A stretch of 64,000 nt of DNA, from positions 248-64,247 of the forward strand of contig NZ_JANFAK020000028.1 of the NCBI RefSeq assembly GCF_024721315.2. Reading direction: 5' to 3'. The position numbers and the translations under genes are program-made. Below the pieces are notes generated by a model. The model did not search any database, was not told the origin of the DNA, and worked only from the letters and a program-made list of their open reading frames with translations. This DNA is from Streptomyces sp. Isolate_45. GTDB taxonomy: Bacteria; Actinomycetota; Actinomycetes; Streptomycetales; Streptomycetaceae. Positions 6,885 to 15,107 of the stretch are shown one piece after another; the stretch's first letter is position 1; each line of letters opens with the position of its first letter.

Positions 6885-9014
6885 ATGTCGTGGACCCGCA
6901 GGTTCCCTGCCGTGCCGGCGGCGCTCCTCGCCGCCCTCCTCGCCTTCCTGTCCCTCCTCGTCGCCGCGCCCACCGCCGGCGCGCACGAGGAGCGCCCCGT
7001 CACCTTCCCCGACGGCACCGGATCCGTCCCGCAGTACCGTTCCGCCGAGCCCGATCTGCTGGTCTGCAAGACCGACCGCGCCGCCTTCGAACGCCGCACG
7101 GCCGGCTTTCCGGACGCCCTGCGGCAACGCAACCTGGCCCTGTACGAGCGGTGCGAGAAGAGCGGCTACCGCCACCTCCAGGAGGCCGTCGACGCCGTCG
7201 ACCGCCCCGGCATGAACATCGCGATCCTCCCCGGCCTCTACGAGGAGGAGCCCTCGCTCCCGAAGCCGACGGGGGAGTGCGCCGCCCTCAAGGCCCCCAA
7301 CTCCTCCTTCGGCTACCAGATCCTGTCCTACGAGCAGCAGGCCCAGTGCCGCCACAACCAGAACCTCGTCGCCATCCTCGGCAAGACCGATCTGCAGATC
7401 GAGGGCACCGGAGCCTCCCGCACCGACGTCGTCATCGACGCCAAGTACCAGAAGCTGAACGGCCTGCGCGCCGACCGGTCCAACGGCATCTACTTCCGAA
7501 ACTTCACCGCGCAGCGCACCACCTTCAACTCGCTGTACGTCCTCGCGGGCGACGGCTTCGTCATCGACGACGTCCTGACCCGCTGGAACGACGAGTACGG
7601 CTTCCTGACCTTCGCCAGCGACCACGGCCTCTACAAGAACTGCGAGTCGTACGGCAACGGCGACTCCGGCATCTACCCCGGCAGCGCCTCCAACATCAAC
7701 GAGGGCCGCGGCTACGACGTCCCCCGCTACTCCATAGAGATCACCGGCTGCCGGAGCCACCACAACATGGTCGGCTACTCCGGCACCGCGGGCGACTCCG
7801 TGTGGGTCCACGACAACGAGTTCGACCAGAACATGGGCGGCGCCTCGATGGACAGCGCCTTCCCCGGGCACCCCGGCCTCCCACAGAACCACGCCCGGTT
7901 CGAACGGAACCTGATCCACGACAACAACCAGGACTACTACCGCCACGTCGCCGACGGCACCTGCGCCAAACCGCCCGCCGAACGCGGCTACGAGCAGGGC
8001 GTGGTCTGCCCGCAGATCTCCATGCCGCCCGGCACCGGCATCATCACCGCCGGCGGCAACTGGAACCTCTACGAGGACAACTGGGTGTACGGGCACAAAC
8101 GCGCGGGCTTCTTCCTCAGCGCCGTCCCCGCCTTCATCCGCGGCGAGGAGGAGTGGTCCAAGCAGACCGACACCTCCCACCACAACCGGTACGCCGGCAA
8201 CGTCCTCGGCAAGGACAGGTCCGGCGCCTCCCGCCCCAACGGCACGGACGTGTGGTGGGACGGACAGGGCAGGGGCAACTGCTGGCAGGACGGACCCGAC
8301 GGCTCCACCCCGGGCACCCTGCCCCGGTGCGGAGACGCCCGCGGCGACGTCAGCGGAGCCTCGGCCCGGCTGGTCGGCGAACCGGTGAAGCTCGCCCAAC
8401 TGCTGGTCTGCGCCGACTACAACGTCCAGGCGCGCAAGCTCCCGGCGGGCTGCGACTGGTACGGGGCCCGCGGCCTGGAGCGCGTCGAGACCCAGCTCGC
8501 GCTGGGAGTGGCCGCCGTCCTGCTGCTGGTCGGCGGGGTGCTGTGGCGGCGCCGGCTGGCCGGCTCACGGCTGGGCGCGGCAGCCTCCCTGCTGGGCTTC
8601 GCCGGGCTCGCCCTGGACGTCGCCGGATCCACGATGCCCCTCGTGGACACCTTCGTCCCCGCGCTCGCCCTGCTGCTGCTGGGCCTGTGGTGGACGGGCG
8701 CCGGACTGGTCCTGCGCGCGGGGCGCCCCTGGCTGGCACGCCTCACCCTGCTCCTGGGCGCCCTGACCCTGCTCGACGCCTTCGACAAGGCCGTCCTGAT
8801 GATCCCCTGGACCCCGCTGAGCCCCGCCTGGGTACGGGCCCTGGTCGCGGTGGTGTGGGTGCTGTGGGCCGCCGTCGCCTCGGCCCGCCCGGGCCCGCCC
8901 ACACCGGCCCGCCCCGCGGGCCCGGGCGACGGCCCGGAAGGCGACCGAACCCCGACCCCGACAACCCCGCCCCCACCCCTCACCACGACCGCCGCCCCCG
9001 CCCCCACCCCATGA
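6885..9014 (+). CDS. Exported right-handed beta-helix protein with C-terminal membrane domain
   Basis: A 709-residue protein with a cleavable-looking signal peptide (hydrophobic core about 10-30, AHEERP after). Residues about 95-450 are a parallel beta-helix of the NosD/pectate-lyase type: repeated asparagine- and glycine-rich turns such as VVIDAKYQKLNGL, GIYFRNFTAQ, GLYKNCESYGNGDSGIY and GNWNLYEDNWVYGHK. Four or five hydrophobic segments follow at about 536-666, then a Pro/Thr-rich tail. The extracytoplasmic helix is His-rich (SHHNMVGY, SHHNRYAG). It is first of three genes with a cupredoxin-like lipoprotein and a polytopic membrane protein. The substrate is unknown; a carbohydrate or metal role is possible. 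Confidence 0.8.
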   Translation: MSWTRRFPAVPAALLAALLAFLSLLVAAPTAGAHEERPVTFPDGTGSVPQYRSAEPDLLVCKTDRAAFERRTAGFPDALRQRNLALYERCEKSGYRHLQEAVDAVDRPGMNIAILPGLYEEEPSLPKPTGECAALKAPNSSFGYQILSYEQQAQCRHNQNLVAILGKTDLQIEGTGASRTDVVIDAKYQKLNGLRADRSNGIYFRNFTAQRTTFNSLYVLAGDGFVIDDVLTRWNDEYGFLTFASDHGLYKNCESYGNGDSGIYPGSASNINEGRGYDVPRYSIEITGCRSHHNMVGYSGTAGDSVWVHDNEFDQNMGGASMDSAFPGHPGLPQNHARFERNLIHDNNQDYYRHVADGTCAKPPAERGYEQGVVCPQISMPPGTGIITAGGNWNLYEDNWVYGHKRAGFFLSAVPAFIRGEEEWSKQTDTSHHNRYAGNVLGKDRSGASRPNGTDVWWDGQGRGNCWQDGPDGSTPGTLPRCGDARGDVSGASARLVGEPVKLAQLLVCADYNVQARKLPAGCDWYGARGLERVETQLALGVAAVLLLVGGVLWRRRLAGSRLGAAASLLGFAGLALDVAGSTMPLVDTFVPALALLLLGLWWTGAGLVLRAGRPWLARLTLLLGALTLLDAFDKAVLMIPWTPLSPAWVRALVAVVWVLWAAVASARPGPPTPARPAGPGDGPEGDRTPTPTTPPPPLTTTAAPAPTP

Positions 9015-9225
9015 CCGCCCGACGGCCACGACCGGCAGCCCCGACACGAAGGACGAGCCGGACACTGACGAGCCGGGCCCCGCGGGGGCGCGGTCCGCGG
9101 GGTCCGGGCCCGAGGGGCCGGGGTCCGTGGGGCCGGGGTTCGAGGGGCGGGGGTCCCTTCCGCCCCGCGCGCCGGGCGGATGGGGAGAAGACCGGCACGA
9201 CCCGAACCAGGACCGGAGGTCCGCA

Positions 9226-10140
9226 GTGAGCGTCCGCCCCGAAACCCGCGTCCGGTGCGACGCGTGCGGGATACCCGCCCGCGCCGCCAGGCCGTCCCGC
9301 CGGACCACCCGCGTCGCCGCGCTGGTCGCCGTCCTCCTCCTGCTCGCGGGCGGCGCGCTGGCGGGGTGCGGGGGCCGGGCCACGACCCACCACAAGCCCG
9401 GCACCACCCACGAGGAGGCGTCCGGCGGAGTCGGGACCCTCCTGGAGGCCCAGGACGGTACGGGCCACCGCCTGCGCGAGGTCCCCGCCCAGGGCGCGCC
9501 GGAGGTCGGGCTCTCCGCACGCCCCGACTCCGAGGACGGCTGGAACCTCCAACTGGCCGTGAAGAACTTCCGCTTCACCCCCGACAGCACCGGCGGCGGC
9601 GCCCTCCCGGGCGCCGGTCACGCCCACCTCGAACTCGACGGCCGCAAGCTGGCCCGGGTGTACGGCCCCTGGTTCCACCTGCCCGCGGCGCAGGTGCCGC
9701 AGGGCCCGCACACCCTGACCGTCCGCCTGTACGCCGACGACCACACCGCCTGGGCCGTCGCCGGCAAGGCGATCCAGGCGGCCGCCCCCCTGACCGCGGC
9801 CCCCGGGGGCAGTGCCGAGCACAGTCACCCGGCGGCCACCCCCAGCGACGCCGCCACACCCCCCGGGGCCTCGCCGCCCGACCGGACCGTCACCCTCGCC
9901 GTCCGGGACGGCAAGGCGCACCCCGCCCCCGACCGCACCGAGCTCAAGCGCGGCGAGCGCGTTGCCCTGCGCGTCACCAGCGACCGCGCCGACACCCTCC
10001 ACGTCCACGGCTACGACAAGGAACTCGCCCTGCCCGCGGGCCAGGAGGCGACCCTGGTCCTGACGGTCGACCGCACGGGCCTCTTCGAGGTCGAGACCCA
10101 CACCTCCGGCCTGCTCCTGACCCAGCTCCTCGTCCGATGA
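9226..10140 (+). CDS. Lipoprotein with C-terminal cupredoxin-like domain
   Basis: The GTG start has GGAGG 7 nt upstream and gives 304 residues. A long basic pre-region precedes a hydrophobic stretch ending LAGC, so Cys48 should be lipidated. The C-terminal ~60 residues have cupredoxin-like strands: TLHVHGYDKELAL, a middle strand, then GLFEVETHTSGLLLTQLLV. Copper sites of the family normally show His...Cys...His...Met. Here the His residues (259/261, 292) remain but the Cys position reads Thr and the Met position Leu, so a type 1 copper centre is unlikely. It lies 211 bp after the beta-helix gene and overlaps the next gene by ATGA. Confidence 0.78.
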   Translation: MSVRPETRVRCDACGIPARAARPSRRTTRVAALVAVLLLLAGGALAGCGGRATTHHKPGTTHEEASGGVGTLLEAQDGTGHRLREVPAQGAPEVGLSARPDSEDGWNLQLAVKNFRFTPDSTGGGALPGAGHAHLELDGRKLARVYGPWFHLPAAQVPQGPHTLTVRLYADDHTAWAVAGKAIQAAAPLTAAPGGSAEHSHPAATPSDAATPPGASPPDRTVTLAVRDGKAHPAPDRTELKRGERVALRVTSDRADTLHVHGYDKELALPAGQEATLVLTVDRTGLFEVETHTSGLLLTQLLVR

Positions 10141-11681
10141 ACCCCGGCACCACCGGCATGGGCACAGGCACCACCGGCGCCGCGACAACGCCCGGCCGGG
10201 TCACGTCCAGCACCACCTGGCCGGGCGGCGGCCCGGGTACGTGGCTCGACTCCTGGGTCCCGATGGGCGGCTCCACGGGGACGCCCATCGGGACGCCCAC
10301 GCAGACCCCCACCGGCATCGGTACCGGCCCCGGCGCGAGCCCGGTCGGCTGGTCCGGCCAGGGCGTGGTCCCTCACCCGGCCGACCCGTCGAACCTGCTG
10401 GCGCACGGGATCGGATCCCAGCACGACCTGCCCATCTCCCCCTTCTACGCGTTCGCCGGGGCCTTCACCGCCCTGTTCGTCTCCTTCCTGGCACTCGGCC
10501 TGCTCTGGTCCGTGTCCCGCTTCCGCGGCGACCGCTCCGGTCTCGCCGTGCCCGCCGGGTTCCAGCGGGTGGCCGACGCGCCGGCCACCCGCCTCACCCT
10601 GCGCGGACTCGGCCTCGCCGCAGCCCTCGCCGTACTCCTCCACCTCCTCCTCGGTCCCGACGACCCCGCCCGCAACCCCGCGCCGGGGGCCGTCTACGTC
10701 CTGTTCTGGGTCGGTCTCGTGCCCGCCTCCCTCCTGCTCGGCCCCGTCTGGCGCCTGGCCAACCCGCTGCGCACCCTCCACCGCCTCCTCACCCGGATCC
10801 GGACCCCGCTCCGGGGCCGCCCGCCCGGCCCCGGGCGCCCCCTGCCCGCCGGGTTGGGCCAATGGCCCGCCGCCGCAGGCCTGTTCGGCTTCACCTGGCT
10901 GGAGCTGGTCGCCCCCGATCCCGCGTCCACCACCACCCTCCTGATCGCACTCACCGCCTACGCCACCGTCCACCTGCTGTTCGCCGCCCGCTACGGCGAG
11001 CACTGGTTCACCGAAGCGGACGCCTTCGAGGCCTACTCCGGCCTCCTGGCCCGGCTTGCCGTCCTCGGCCGCCGGGCCGACGGCCGCCTGGTCCTCCGCA
11101 ACCCCTTCCACGGACTCGACGCGACGCCCGAGCGGCCCGGACTCGTCGCCACCGTCTGCGTCCTCCTCGGTTCCACCGCCTACGACGGCTACAGCGACAA
11201 CCCCTCCTGGATCAACGCCGTTCAGACCTCCCCCCTCGGCCGCACCCCCACGGCCACCCTCGGACTGCTCGCTTCCGTCGCTCTCGTCGCCACCCTCTAC
11301 TGCCTGTGCGCGGCGATCACCCGCCTCGTCGCCGGCCCTCACCCCGGCCCGCTGACCGCCTTCGCGCACTCACTCGTGCCGATCGCCCTCGGCTATCTCA
11401 TCGCCCACTACTTCTCCCTCCTCGTCACCGAAGGGCCACGCACAGTGAGCATCGCACTCGGCACTGACAACGGCTCCGATCCCGGTCCCCCCTTGGATCC
11501 TGGCGGGCTCGCCGCCCTTCAGGTCATCGCCGTCATCACCGGGCACGTACTCGGAGTGATCGCCGCGCACGACCGCTCCGTACGGCTCTTCCCACCCGCC
11601 AAGGCCGTCGCGGGTCAACTCCCGCTGCTCGCGCTGATGATCGCGTACACCATCGGCGGGCTCGCCCTGCTGCTCAACTGA
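10137..11681 (+). CDS. Polytopic membrane protein of the beta-helix/lipoprotein operon
   Basis: 514 residues starting at an ATG that overlaps the lipoprotein stop (ATGA), which implies translational coupling. The first ~95 residues are Thr/Gly/Pro-rich and probably extracytoplasmic. About nine or ten hydrophobic helices follow (around 103-125, 155-173, 185-206, 243-260, 265-284, 336-356, 374-398, 406-430, 456-476 and 490-513). Histidines in or near helices (H411, H424, H470, H478) could bind a metal or haem. I do not recognise the family. Its fixed position suggests it works with the two exported proteins upstream. Confidence 0.8.
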   Translation: MNPGTTGMGTGTTGAATTPGRVTSSTTWPGGGPGTWLDSWVPMGGSTGTPIGTPTQTPTGIGTGPGASPVGWSGQGVVPHPADPSNLLAHGIGSQHDLPISPFYAFAGAFTALFVSFLALGLLWSVSRFRGDRSGLAVPAGFQRVADAPATRLTLRGLGLAAALAVLLHLLLGPDDPARNPAPGAVYVLFWVGLVPASLLLGPVWRLANPLRTLHRLLTRIRTPLRGRPPGPGRPLPAGLGQWPAAAGLFGFTWLELVAPDPASTTTLLIALTAYATVHLLFAARYGEHWFTEADAFEAYSGLLARLAVLGRRADGRLVLRNPFHGLDATPERPGLVATVCVLLGSTAYDGYSDNPSWINAVQTSPLGRTPTATLGLLASVALVATLYCLCAAITRLVAGPHPGPLTAFAHSLVPIALGYLIAHYFSLLVTEGPRTVSIALGTDNGSDPGPPLDPGGLAALQVIAVITGHVLGVIAAHDRSVRLFPPAKAVAGQLPLLALMIAYTIGGLALLLN

Positions 11682-12725: not shown

Positions 12726-15107
12726 ATGCCCCGCACCGCCCCGCGCATCTGCCCGCTCTGCGAAGCCACCTGCGGCCTCACCCTCACCATCGAGGGCACC
12801 GACGTGACCGGGGCCCGCGGCGACCGCGACGACGTCTTCAGCCGCGGGTTCATCTGCCCCAAGGGCGCCGCCTTCGGCTCCCTCGACGCCGACCCCGACC
12901 GGCTGCGCGCCCCCCTCGTCCGCCGCGACGGGCACCTGCGGGAGGCCACCTGGGAGGAGGCCTACGACGCCATCGCCGCCGCGGTGCCCGCACTCGTCGC
13001 GGAGCACGGAGCCCAGGCCGTCGGCGTCGTCCTCGGGAACCCCAACGTCCACACCATGGCCGGAGCCCTCTACCCGCCGCTCCTCGTCAACGCGCTCGGC
13101 ACCCGGAACCTGTTCACCGCCAGCACCCTCGACCAGATGCCCAAGCACGTGTCCAGCGGGCTCCTGTTCGGAGACCCCTTCGCCATCCCGGTCCCCGACC
13201 TGGACCGCACGGACTTCCTCCTGGTCCTCGGCGCCAATCCGGTCGAATCCAACGGATCGCTCTGCACCGCCCCCGACTTCCCCGGCCGCCTGAAGGCGCT
13301 ACGGGCCCGCGGTGGCACGCTCGTGGTCGTCGACCCGCGCCGTACGCGCACCGCCCGGCTGGCGGACCGTCACCTCGCCCCGCGCCCCGGCAGCGACGCC
13401 CTGTTGCTGGCCGCCCTCGCCCACACCCTGATGACGGAGAAACTCGCGGCGCCCGGCCCGCTCGCCGAGCACATCGAAGGACTCCGGGAACTCGCGGACG
13501 CCCTCGCTAGTTTCACCCCCGAGGCCGTCGCCCCCGCCTGCGACCTCCCGGCCACCGAGATCCGCGCCCTCGCCCGCGACCTCGCGGCCGCGCCGACCGC
13601 CGCCGTCTACGGGCGGATCGGCAGCTGCACCGTCGAGTACGGCACCCTCGCCAGTTGGCTGGTCGACGTGCTGAACATCCTCACCGGCAACCTCGACCGC
13701 CCGGGCGGAGCCCTCTTCCCGCTCGCCGCGGCCGGCCCGCGACCCCGCCCCGCCGGGCCGGGCCGGGGATTCGCCCTCGGCCGCTGGCACAGCCGGGTCA
13801 GCGGTCACCCCGAGGTGAAGAGCGAGCTGCCCAGCGCGGCACTGGCAGAGGAGATCGAGACACCCGGTGAAGGGCGGATCCGCGCCCTGATCTGCATCGC
13901 GGCCAACCCGGTGCTGTCCGCCCCGGACGGCCGCCGGCTCGATGCCGCCCTCGCCGGACTCGACTTCATGGTCAGCGTCGACCCCTACCTCAACGAGACC
14001 TCGCGCCACGCCCACGTCGTCCTGCCCCCGCCGCCGCCCTCCCGGAGCGCGCACCACGACTTCGCGTTCAACGGCTTCGCCGTCCACAACCAGGTCCGCT
14101 ACACGCGCCCGGCCGTCCCCCTCGAAGCGGACCGGCTCGACGAGTGCGAGATCCACGCCCGCCTCGTCCTCGCCGTCTCGGGCATGCACGGCGCCGCCGA
14201 GCCCTCAGCGGTGGACGAGCTCGCCATCCGGGCCACCCTCTCCAAGGAGACCTCCGACCGGCACTCCCCGCTGCACGGAGCCGACCCCGAACACCTCGCA
14301 GGGCTCCTCACCGGCGAGAACGGACCCGAGCGACGACTCGACCTGATGCTCCGACTCGGCCCGTACGGGGACCGCTTCGGGGCGGCCGGGCACGACACCG
14401 CCGGCGCGGGTGACGACCCGGGCGCGGGCAGAAGCCGGGGCGGTGCCGGAACGGCCGGCAGCGGAACGGCCGGGGACGCAACGACCGGCGCCCCGGCCGG
14501 CCTCGGGGCGCCGGACGGTGACGCCGGCGGGACGACGCACGAGGCAGGGCTCAACCTCGAACGGCTTCTCGCCCACCCGCACGGCATTGACCTGGGCCCG
14601 CTGCGGCCACGCCTTCCGGGCGTGCTCAGGACCCGCAGCGGCAGGATCGAGCTGCTGCCGGACCCGATCGCGGCCGAGCTGCCCAGGCTCCGCGCCGCGC
14701 TCGCCGAACGCCCCGCCGCCCTGGTGCTCGTGGGCCGCCGCCATCTGCGGTCCAACAACAGCTGGTTGCACAACGTCCCGGCCCTCACCGGAGGTTCCAA
14801 CCGCTGCACCCTCCAGGTCCACCCGGAGGACGCGGCGCGCCACGGCCTCACCGACGGCGGTCGCGCCAGGATCAGCGCGGACGGCGGCAGCCTGGACGTG
14901 CCGGTCGAGGTCACCGACACCGTCCGTGCGGGCGTCGTCAGCCTCCCGCACGGCTGGGGCCACGACCGGCCCGGCACCCGGCTCGCGGTGGCCGCCGCCG
15001 ATCCCGGTGCCAACGTGAACCAGCTGCTCGACGGCACCCGGCTGGACCCCCTGTCCGGCACGGCAGTGCTCAACGCCTTCCCCGTCCAGCTGGCACCCCT
15101 GCCCTGA
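12726..15107 (+). CDS. Molybdopterin-dependent oxidoreductase (formate dehydrogenase/BisC-like), Fe4S4
   Basis: A 793-residue member of the DMSO-reductase superfamily. Cys9, Cys12, Cys16 and Cys44 (CPLCEATCGL ... GFICPKG) form the N-terminal [4Fe-4S] site. Molybdopterin-binding blocks follow (LLVLGANPVESNG, VVDPRRT, NILTGNLDRPGGALFP), and the C-terminal dinucleotide domain begins about residue 660 (LVGRRHLRSNNSWLHNVP, VSLPHGWGH). An insertion of about 50 residues rich in Gly/Ala/Asp (about 555-605) separates the domains. No electron-transfer partner or FdhD/FdhE gene is adjacent. There is no Tat signal, so it is cytoplasmic. The substrate is unknown. Confidence 0.9.
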   Translation: MPRTAPRICPLCEATCGLTLTIEGTDVTGARGDRDDVFSRGFICPKGAAFGSLDADPDRLRAPLVRRDGHLREATWEEAYDAIAAAVPALVAEHGAQAVGVVLGNPNVHTMAGALYPPLLVNALGTRNLFTASTLDQMPKHVSSGLLFGDPFAIPVPDLDRTDFLLVLGANPVESNGSLCTAPDFPGRLKALRARGGTLVVVDPRRTRTARLADRHLAPRPGSDALLLAALAHTLMTEKLAAPGPLAEHIEGLRELADALASFTPEAVAPACDLPATEIRALARDLAAAPTAAVYGRIGSCTVEYGTLASWLVDVLNILTGNLDRPGGALFPLAAAGPRPRPAGPGRGFALGRWHSRVSGHPEVKSELPSAALAEEIETPGEGRIRALICIAANPVLSAPDGRRLDAALAGLDFMVSVDPYLNETSRHAHVVLPPPPPSRSAHHDFAFNGFAVHNQVRYTRPAVPLEADRLDECEIHARLVLAVSGMHGAAEPSAVDELAIRATLSKETSDRHSPLHGADPEHLAGLLTGENGPERRLDLMLRLGPYGDRFGAAGHDTAGAGDDPGAGRSRGGAGTAGSGTAGDATTGAPAGLGAPDGDAGGTTHEAGLNLERLLAHPHGIDLGPLRPRLPGVLRTRSGRIELLPDPIAAELPRLRAALAERPAALVLVGRRHLRSNNSWLHNVPALTGGSNRCTLQVHPEDAARHGLTDGGRARISADGGSLDVPVEVTDTVRAGVVSLPHGWGHDRPGTRLAVAAADPGANVNQLLDGTRLDPLSGTAVLNAFPVQLAPLP

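What the first reader, a model, noticed from the sequence alone, without database searches (positions are those of the whole stretch)
6885..11681. Three-gene envelope operon: beta-helix membrane protein, cupredoxin-like lipoprotein and His-containing membrane protein
The beta-helix protein carries its own C-terminal membrane segments, which is unusual for NosD/pectate-lyase-type helices. The lipoprotein has a cupredoxin-like C-terminus without Cys and Met ligands, and the third protein has paired histidines in or near helices (H411/H424, H470/H478). The last two genes overlap (ATGA). I know of no named system with this make-up; a role in metal or haem handling at the cell surface, or in modifying a surface polymer, is possible.
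Basis: partly seen in the sequence, partly recalled or inferred. Interest (0 to 1): 0.68.

Follow-up and report, generated by a model that had tools for sequence, protein, structure and literature searches.

The report
Probable copper-handling operon, new membrane family
Three neighbouring Streptomyces genes encode a surface beta-helix protein, a copper-protein-like lipoprotein and an unnamed membrane protein; the last two form an old pair that often sits beside copper genes in other microbes, so this is probably an undescribed way of handling copper at the cell surface.

Summary
Genes A (beta-helix with membrane tail), B (lipoprotein) and C (membrane protein) form an operon: all 23 of 101 same-genus genomes with C also have A and B.

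The old core is B-C. A domain like B's cupredoxin C-terminus lies just upstream of C in 29 of 46 loci outside Streptomyces; a true CopC takes its place in 2 more; 15 have neither. No Pfam, NCBIfam or PDB relative of C was found, and it is not detectably CopD or CtaG.

Copper genes recur near B-C: copper monooxygenase, SCO1, CopC, and PCuAC fused to B's other domain. Best reading: B binds copper outside and hands it to C, which takes it into or through the membrane, as CopC-CopD does but with an unrelated membrane protein. A's mature form should start with a conserved His; its job is unclear, and A's distant relatives showed no copper neighbours. Metal binding and transport are untested.

The parts
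6885..9014 (+). Gene A, 709 aa: signal peptide, right-handed beta-helix, C-terminal hydrophobic segments (residues 531-666, about 8475-8882)
   Evidence: PF13229 E 2.1e-9; hydropathy; ORF
6984..6986 (+). A His34, predicted first residue of the mature protein (A-G-A | H-E-E-R)
   Evidence: H-x-E-R after a cleavage-site-like triplet in 93 of 96 distinct A homologues; His34 17 of 17 in a diverse alignment
9226..10140 (+). Gene B, 304 aa from GTG 9226 (a longer frame starts at GTG 9127): lipoprotein, lipobox Cys48 at 9367-9369
   Evidence: ORF; lipobox read from sequence
9391..9795 (+). B N-terminal domain (Bn), weakly like DUF4399; in Sulfitobacter it is fused to PCuAC
   Evidence: profile matches, Pfam, alignment
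9835..10137 (+). B C-terminal cupredoxin-like domain (Bc); HxH of LHVHGY at 10000-10008
   Evidence: model and fold match; alignment
10137..11681 (+). Gene C, 514 aa membrane protein; conserved part from about 10386
   Evidence: ORF; homologue alignment; no Pfam or NCBIfam match
10404..10406 (+). C His90, nearly invariant N-terminal His (AHG) before the first membrane helix
11406..11408 (+). C His424, invariant
11544..11570 (+). C His470 and His478 on one predicted helix, both invariant
11637..11639 (+). C Met501, invariant

Best explanation
The operon encodes an envelope copper-handling system that works like CopC-CopD (YcnJ) but with a different membrane protein. B, a lipoprotein on the outer face of the membrane, binds a copper ion through histidines (HxH and neighbours) and passes it to C. 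C, a polytopic membrane protein with an N-terminal His and invariant His/Met residues in its last helices, takes the ion across or into the membrane, for the cytosol or for loading a membrane copper enzyme. A is a secreted beta-helix protein held by its membrane tail, whose mature form should begin with His; it would be an accessory loading scaffold (compare NosD) or the protein served. Shown: operon and co-occurrence, predicted cupredoxin fold of B, conserved residues, B-C pairing in distant groups, CopC in B's place, copper genes nearby. Inferred: that the metal is copper, the direction of flow, and what A does.
For: Bc directly upstream of C in 29 of 46 non-Streptomyces loci. CopC (PF04234, E 2e-13 and 4e-13) overlaps C by 4 nt in L104 and L103, in Bc's place. 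SCO1-SenC within 5 kb of 5 of 54 C loci, 0.065 expected; CopC within 5 kb of 3 of 54, 0.17 expected. PCuAC fused to a Bn domain, divergent from C, in Sulfitobacter. Copper monooxygenase genes within 10 kb on 4 of 8 annotated actinobacterial plasmids opened. One chromosomal amoCAB-Bc-C run. Invariant H424, H470, H478, M501 in C and HxH in Bc. Bc fold matches copper proteins. For YcnJ, a His in the CopC domain and a His in the membrane CopD domain are both needed under copper limitation (PMC13344008, abstract and section 8).
Against: No metal measurement exists. 15 of 46 loci have neither Bc nor CopC beside C. Only 1 of 3 AmoC genomes has B-C near. The Bc profile was built from the same loci. 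SCO1 neighbours come from two families and the overlapping CopC from one, so independent events are few. The window's own neighbours show no copper gene that I recognised (read by eye), and 11 loci around A's distant relatives showed no Bc, Bn or C. The genome already has two CopC-CopD fusions, so the need for another system is unclear. Pfam did not reach its cut-off for Cupredoxin_1 in B.
Confidence: 0.5

Rival explanations
1. C is a membrane haem or redox protein and B its electron-carrying cupredoxin, so the pair moves electrons rather than copper.
For: Three invariant membrane histidines; cupredoxin fold of B.
Against: Bc has no Cys, which blue-copper electron carriers use (general knowledge; sequence). 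CopC, a copper-binding protein, replaces Bc in two loci. No match of C to a cytochrome family.
Confidence: 0.13
2. A is an enzyme on a surface polymer and B-C serve it, for instance by supplying its metal.
For: Invariant Asp, Tyr and His in A's beta-helix; two distant A relatives carry cell-wall-binding domains; A relatives occur without C.
Against: No match of A to a named lyase or glycosidase family or to a PDB sequence. B-C occur without A in other lineages.
Confidence: 0.14
3. The system handles another metal, such as zinc, nickel or cobalt.
For: His-only sites bind several metals (general knowledge); a Cupredoxin_1 protein, 4hcg, was solved with zinc (title); CbtA lies near C on two plasmids.
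Against: SCO1, CopC, PCuAC and copper monooxygenase neighbours all point to copper.
Confidence: 0.12

Closest known systems
CopC-CopD / YcnJ copper acquisition (PF04234, PF05425)
   Same: A secreted copper-binding-type protein encoded directly with a polytopic membrane protein that has conserved histidines; CopC itself sits in B's place in two loci
   Different: B is cupredoxin-like, not CopC; C shows no detectable relation to CopD (hhalign probability 0.1%)
NosD-NosFY with lipoprotein NosL (recalled)
   Same: A secreted beta-helix protein plus a lipoprotein in a copper setting
   Different: No ABC transporter genes recognised beside A (by eye); A has its own membrane tail
Extended pmo/amo operons with copC, copD and PCuAC (PMC6189053, passages)
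   Same: Copper-handling genes beside copper monooxygenase
   Different: On the actinobacterial plasmids the B-C pair is near; no CopC or CopD is annotated within the 10 kb shown
Caa3_CtaG copper-insertion membrane proteins (PF09678)
   Same: Membrane protein linked to copper
   Different: No detectable relation (hhalign probability 0.1%)
TIGR03805 parallel beta-helix proteins
   Same: Weak profile match to A (31.7 bits)
   Different: Far below the curated cut-off of 141.5 bits

Membership tests
CopC-CopD | CopC domain in the extracellular partner | tested here: not met
   B matches no CopC; only a sub-threshold Cupredoxin_1
CopC-CopD | CopD domain in the membrane partner | tested here: not met
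   No Pfam match; hhalign probability 0.1% against 18 CopD proteins
CopC-CopD | Extracellular metal protein and polytopic partner encoded together | tested here: met
CopC-CopD | Copper binding and copper uptake | not testable with these tools
   needs experiment
Cupredoxin fold (PF13473 Cupredoxin_1) | Cupredoxin fold | tested here: met
   Model pLDDT 88, Z 12.3 to 1as6
Cupredoxin fold (PF13473 Cupredoxin_1) | Pfam gathering score | tested here: not met
   B 16.2 bits against 27; homologue L107 passes with 39.9
Blue copper (type 1) proteins | Cys ligand | tested here: not met
   No Cys in Bc (sequence; alignment)
Right-handed beta-helix (PF13229) | Pfam gathering score | tested here: met
   A 37.7 bits against 25.9
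TIGR03805 beta_helix_1 | Curated cut-off | tested here: not met
   31.7 bits against 141.5
NosD with NosF and NosY | ABC transporter genes beside the beta-helix gene | tested here: inconclusive
   None recognised by eye in the translations; no profile search made
Caa3_CtaG (PF09678) | Detectable profile similarity of C | tested here: not met
   hhalign probability 0.1% against 16 proteins
DUF4399 (PF14347) | Gathering score for the Bn domain | tested here: not met
   No match in B; relatives L095 19.5 and L104 25.1 bits against 28
His-brace copper proteins | Mature N-terminal His | tested here: inconclusive
   Predicted from sequence for A and for 10 of 37 C homologues; the window's C has no such leader; no N-terminus was measured
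His-brace copper proteins | Second His completing the copper site | not tested
   No structure of A was predicted

The most novel reading that the evidence does not exclude
C founds a new class of copper membrane transporter or insertase, present in Actinomycetota, Proteobacteria and haloarchaea, which fills the place of CopD beside actinobacterial copper monooxygenases; and A is a new kind of beta-helix copper protein with a His-brace formed at its mature N-terminus.
Probability: 0.22. Interest if true: 0.82.

Novelty: new variant of a known kind. Interest (0 to 1): 0.62.

Why it matters
How bacteria take copper in is less understood than how they export it; CopC-CopD (YcnJ) is a main worked example. 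A second membrane family, not detectably related, doing the same kind of job beside copper monooxygenases of alkane-oxidising mycobacteria and rhodococci would make it directly testable how those enzymes get their copper. It would also give a function to a protein that the annotated records opened here call only 'hypothetical protein'.

Tried and rejected
Set aside: C as CopD (hhalign probability 0.1%) or CtaG (0.1%). C as a known fold: Foldseek best E 0.14 and no row at or below 0.001; VIA-align best Z 6.6, helical rows without a pattern. The C model has pLDDT 72, so this does not show a new fold. C by sequence in PDB: one chance-level row, E 0.052.

Fenitrothion hydrolase (FedA/FedB) came from memory as a name given to some actinobacterial membrane proteins; two literature searches listed nothing on it, so it stays an untested memory.

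A's distant relatives: in 11 loci around them no Bc, Bn or C was found and the 8 proteins scanned by Pfam were no copper proteins. This counts against tying A firmly to copper. I had first taken the end of two A relatives for a Cu/Zn superoxide dismutase domain by eye; Pfam found cell-wall-binding domains and no such domain, so I dropped it.

The Bc profile was built from homologues in the same loci, so 29 of 46 leans towards finding them; tblastn with the window's domain alone found fewer. The printed list was cut; the CopC genes beside C in G101 and G254 come from Pfam scans.

Full report
What is there. The window lies in a 9.07-Mb genome whose nearest named relatives of C are Streptomyces. 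Gene A (6885-9014) has a signal peptide, a right-handed beta-helix (PF13229, E 2.1e-9) and five C-terminal hydrophobic segments. Gene B (9226-10140) is a lipoprotein; its AlphaFold model (pLDDT 88) is all beta, and its last ~95 residues match copper proteins (Z 12.3 to nitrite reductase 1as6, Z 11.0 to the copper chaperone CupA 4f2e). Gene C (10137-11681) has no Pfam or NCBIfam match. In relative L060 the three genes overlap by 4 nt each, so there they are one translation-coupled operon.

Co-occurrence. Among 101 same-genus genomes C is in 23, A with E below 1e-290 in 24, and B in the same 23 as C (in G047 only B's C-terminal half). Another 32 genomes match B, 31 of them only in its N-terminal half. 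The one genome with A but no C (G050) is 82% complete, with A at a contig edge. Exceptions to tight linkage: G012 (C about 0.9 Mb from A-B), G071 (A on another contig, near its edge), G041 (C a fragment). In the named-genome collection 506 stretches encode a relative of C, and the best 80 loci were returned: 68 have A upstream; the other 12 reach a contig end within 2.3 kb of C. One of the 68 is Nocardioides speluncae, the rest Streptomyces.

The old core is B-C. C is found in 50 of 296 genomes across the phylum and in 26 plasmid records, including Mycobacterium, Rhodococcus, Pseudonocardia, rhizobia, Variovorax, Sulfitobacter and Haladaptatus. I opened 15 of the 26; 2 of these carry no gene annotation there. 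In 46 loci outside Streptomyces a domain like B's C-terminus lies just upstream of C in 29, a CopC in 2, neither in 15. Seven same-class loci add a membrane protein of about 610-650 aa upstream; three of the seven were scanned and had no Pfam match.

Residues. In 37 C homologues H424, H470, H478 and M501 (514-aa numbering) are invariant, with W191, P210, G241, G287, D350, P415, I416 and A423; H90 is present in at least 90% (35 of 37 by pattern). In 10 of 37 a leader that looks like a signal peptide ends just before this His; the window's C has no such leader. In 42 Bc sequences both histidines of HxH are invariant. In A, H-x-E-R follows a cleavage-site-like triplet in 93 of 96 distinct homologues; the other 3 showed no such motif in the frame read. 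H34 and H329 are in 17 of 17 diverse homologues.

Copper setting. SCO1-SenC within 5 kb of 5 of 54 C loci (four genomes, two families), 0.065 expected. CopC within 5 kb of 3 of 54, 0.17 expected; two of the three overlap C and come from one family. In Sulfitobacter a PCuAC protein fused to a Bn-like domain is divergent from C. Copper monooxygenase lies within 10 kb on 4 of 8 annotated actinobacterial plasmids opened: M. dioxanotrophicus, M. chubuense NBB4 and two Rhodococcus. The other four show none in view, two of them with CopC. The converse test is weaker: 3 of 401 genomes of one family have AmoC; in 1 of the 3 Bc-C follows amoCAB directly, in the other 2 (one genus) there is none within 17 kb.

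How it most likely works. B holds copper outside and passes it to C, which moves it into or through the membrane. This is CopC-CopD logic (PMC13344008, abstract and section 8 read) with a membrane protein not detectably related to CopD. That the metal is copper, the direction, and A's part are inferred. A is the weakest link: it is kept with B-C in Streptomyces, but around its distant relatives I found no copper gene.

Literature. Six protein or locus names of C homologues gave no paper in the held library. A review of NBB4 gene clusters, seen in passages only, lists regulators near hmoCAB and does not mention the pair in the passages shown (PMC8784404). Methanotroph pmo operons with copC, copD and PCuAC are described in PMC6189053 (passages). 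Further listings gave nothing on this pair by title or abstract. The library lacks most subscription papers, so absence from print is not shown.

Noticed in passing
L074:4595-6436, L082:4475-6355 and five more same-class loci: A membrane protein family of about 610-650 aa lies upstream of Bc-C, with shared His-containing motifs (LHIG, NPAHY, WHR, PTHLM) and no Pfam match in the three scanned.
   Followed up: partly
L117-L128: In 31 other same-genus genomes B's N-terminal domain occurs as a separate short lipoprotein-like protein without the cupredoxin half (12 loci fetched); their neighbours were not studied.
   Followed up: no
L266:5749-8793, L267:5596-8838: Two distant A relatives carry three cell-wall-binding repeats (PF04122) after the beta-helix.
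   Followed up: partly
L111, L115: In Neorhizobium and Sulfitobacter plasmids C homologues lie inside nicotinate-degradation gene clusters (6-hydroxynicotinate reductase, molybdenum hydroxylase).
   Followed up: no
L112:7773-9053 and 13510-14889: A Haladaptatus plasmid has two C homologues within 6 kb.
   Followed up: no
window 9015-9225: The A-B gap holds G-rich near-repeats (ggggtccg/gggccgggg), while in relative L060 A and B overlap.
   Followed up: no
window 12726-15107: A molybdopterin oxidoreductase with a formate dehydrogenase/nitrate reductase-like profile lies downstream of the operon.
   Followed up: no
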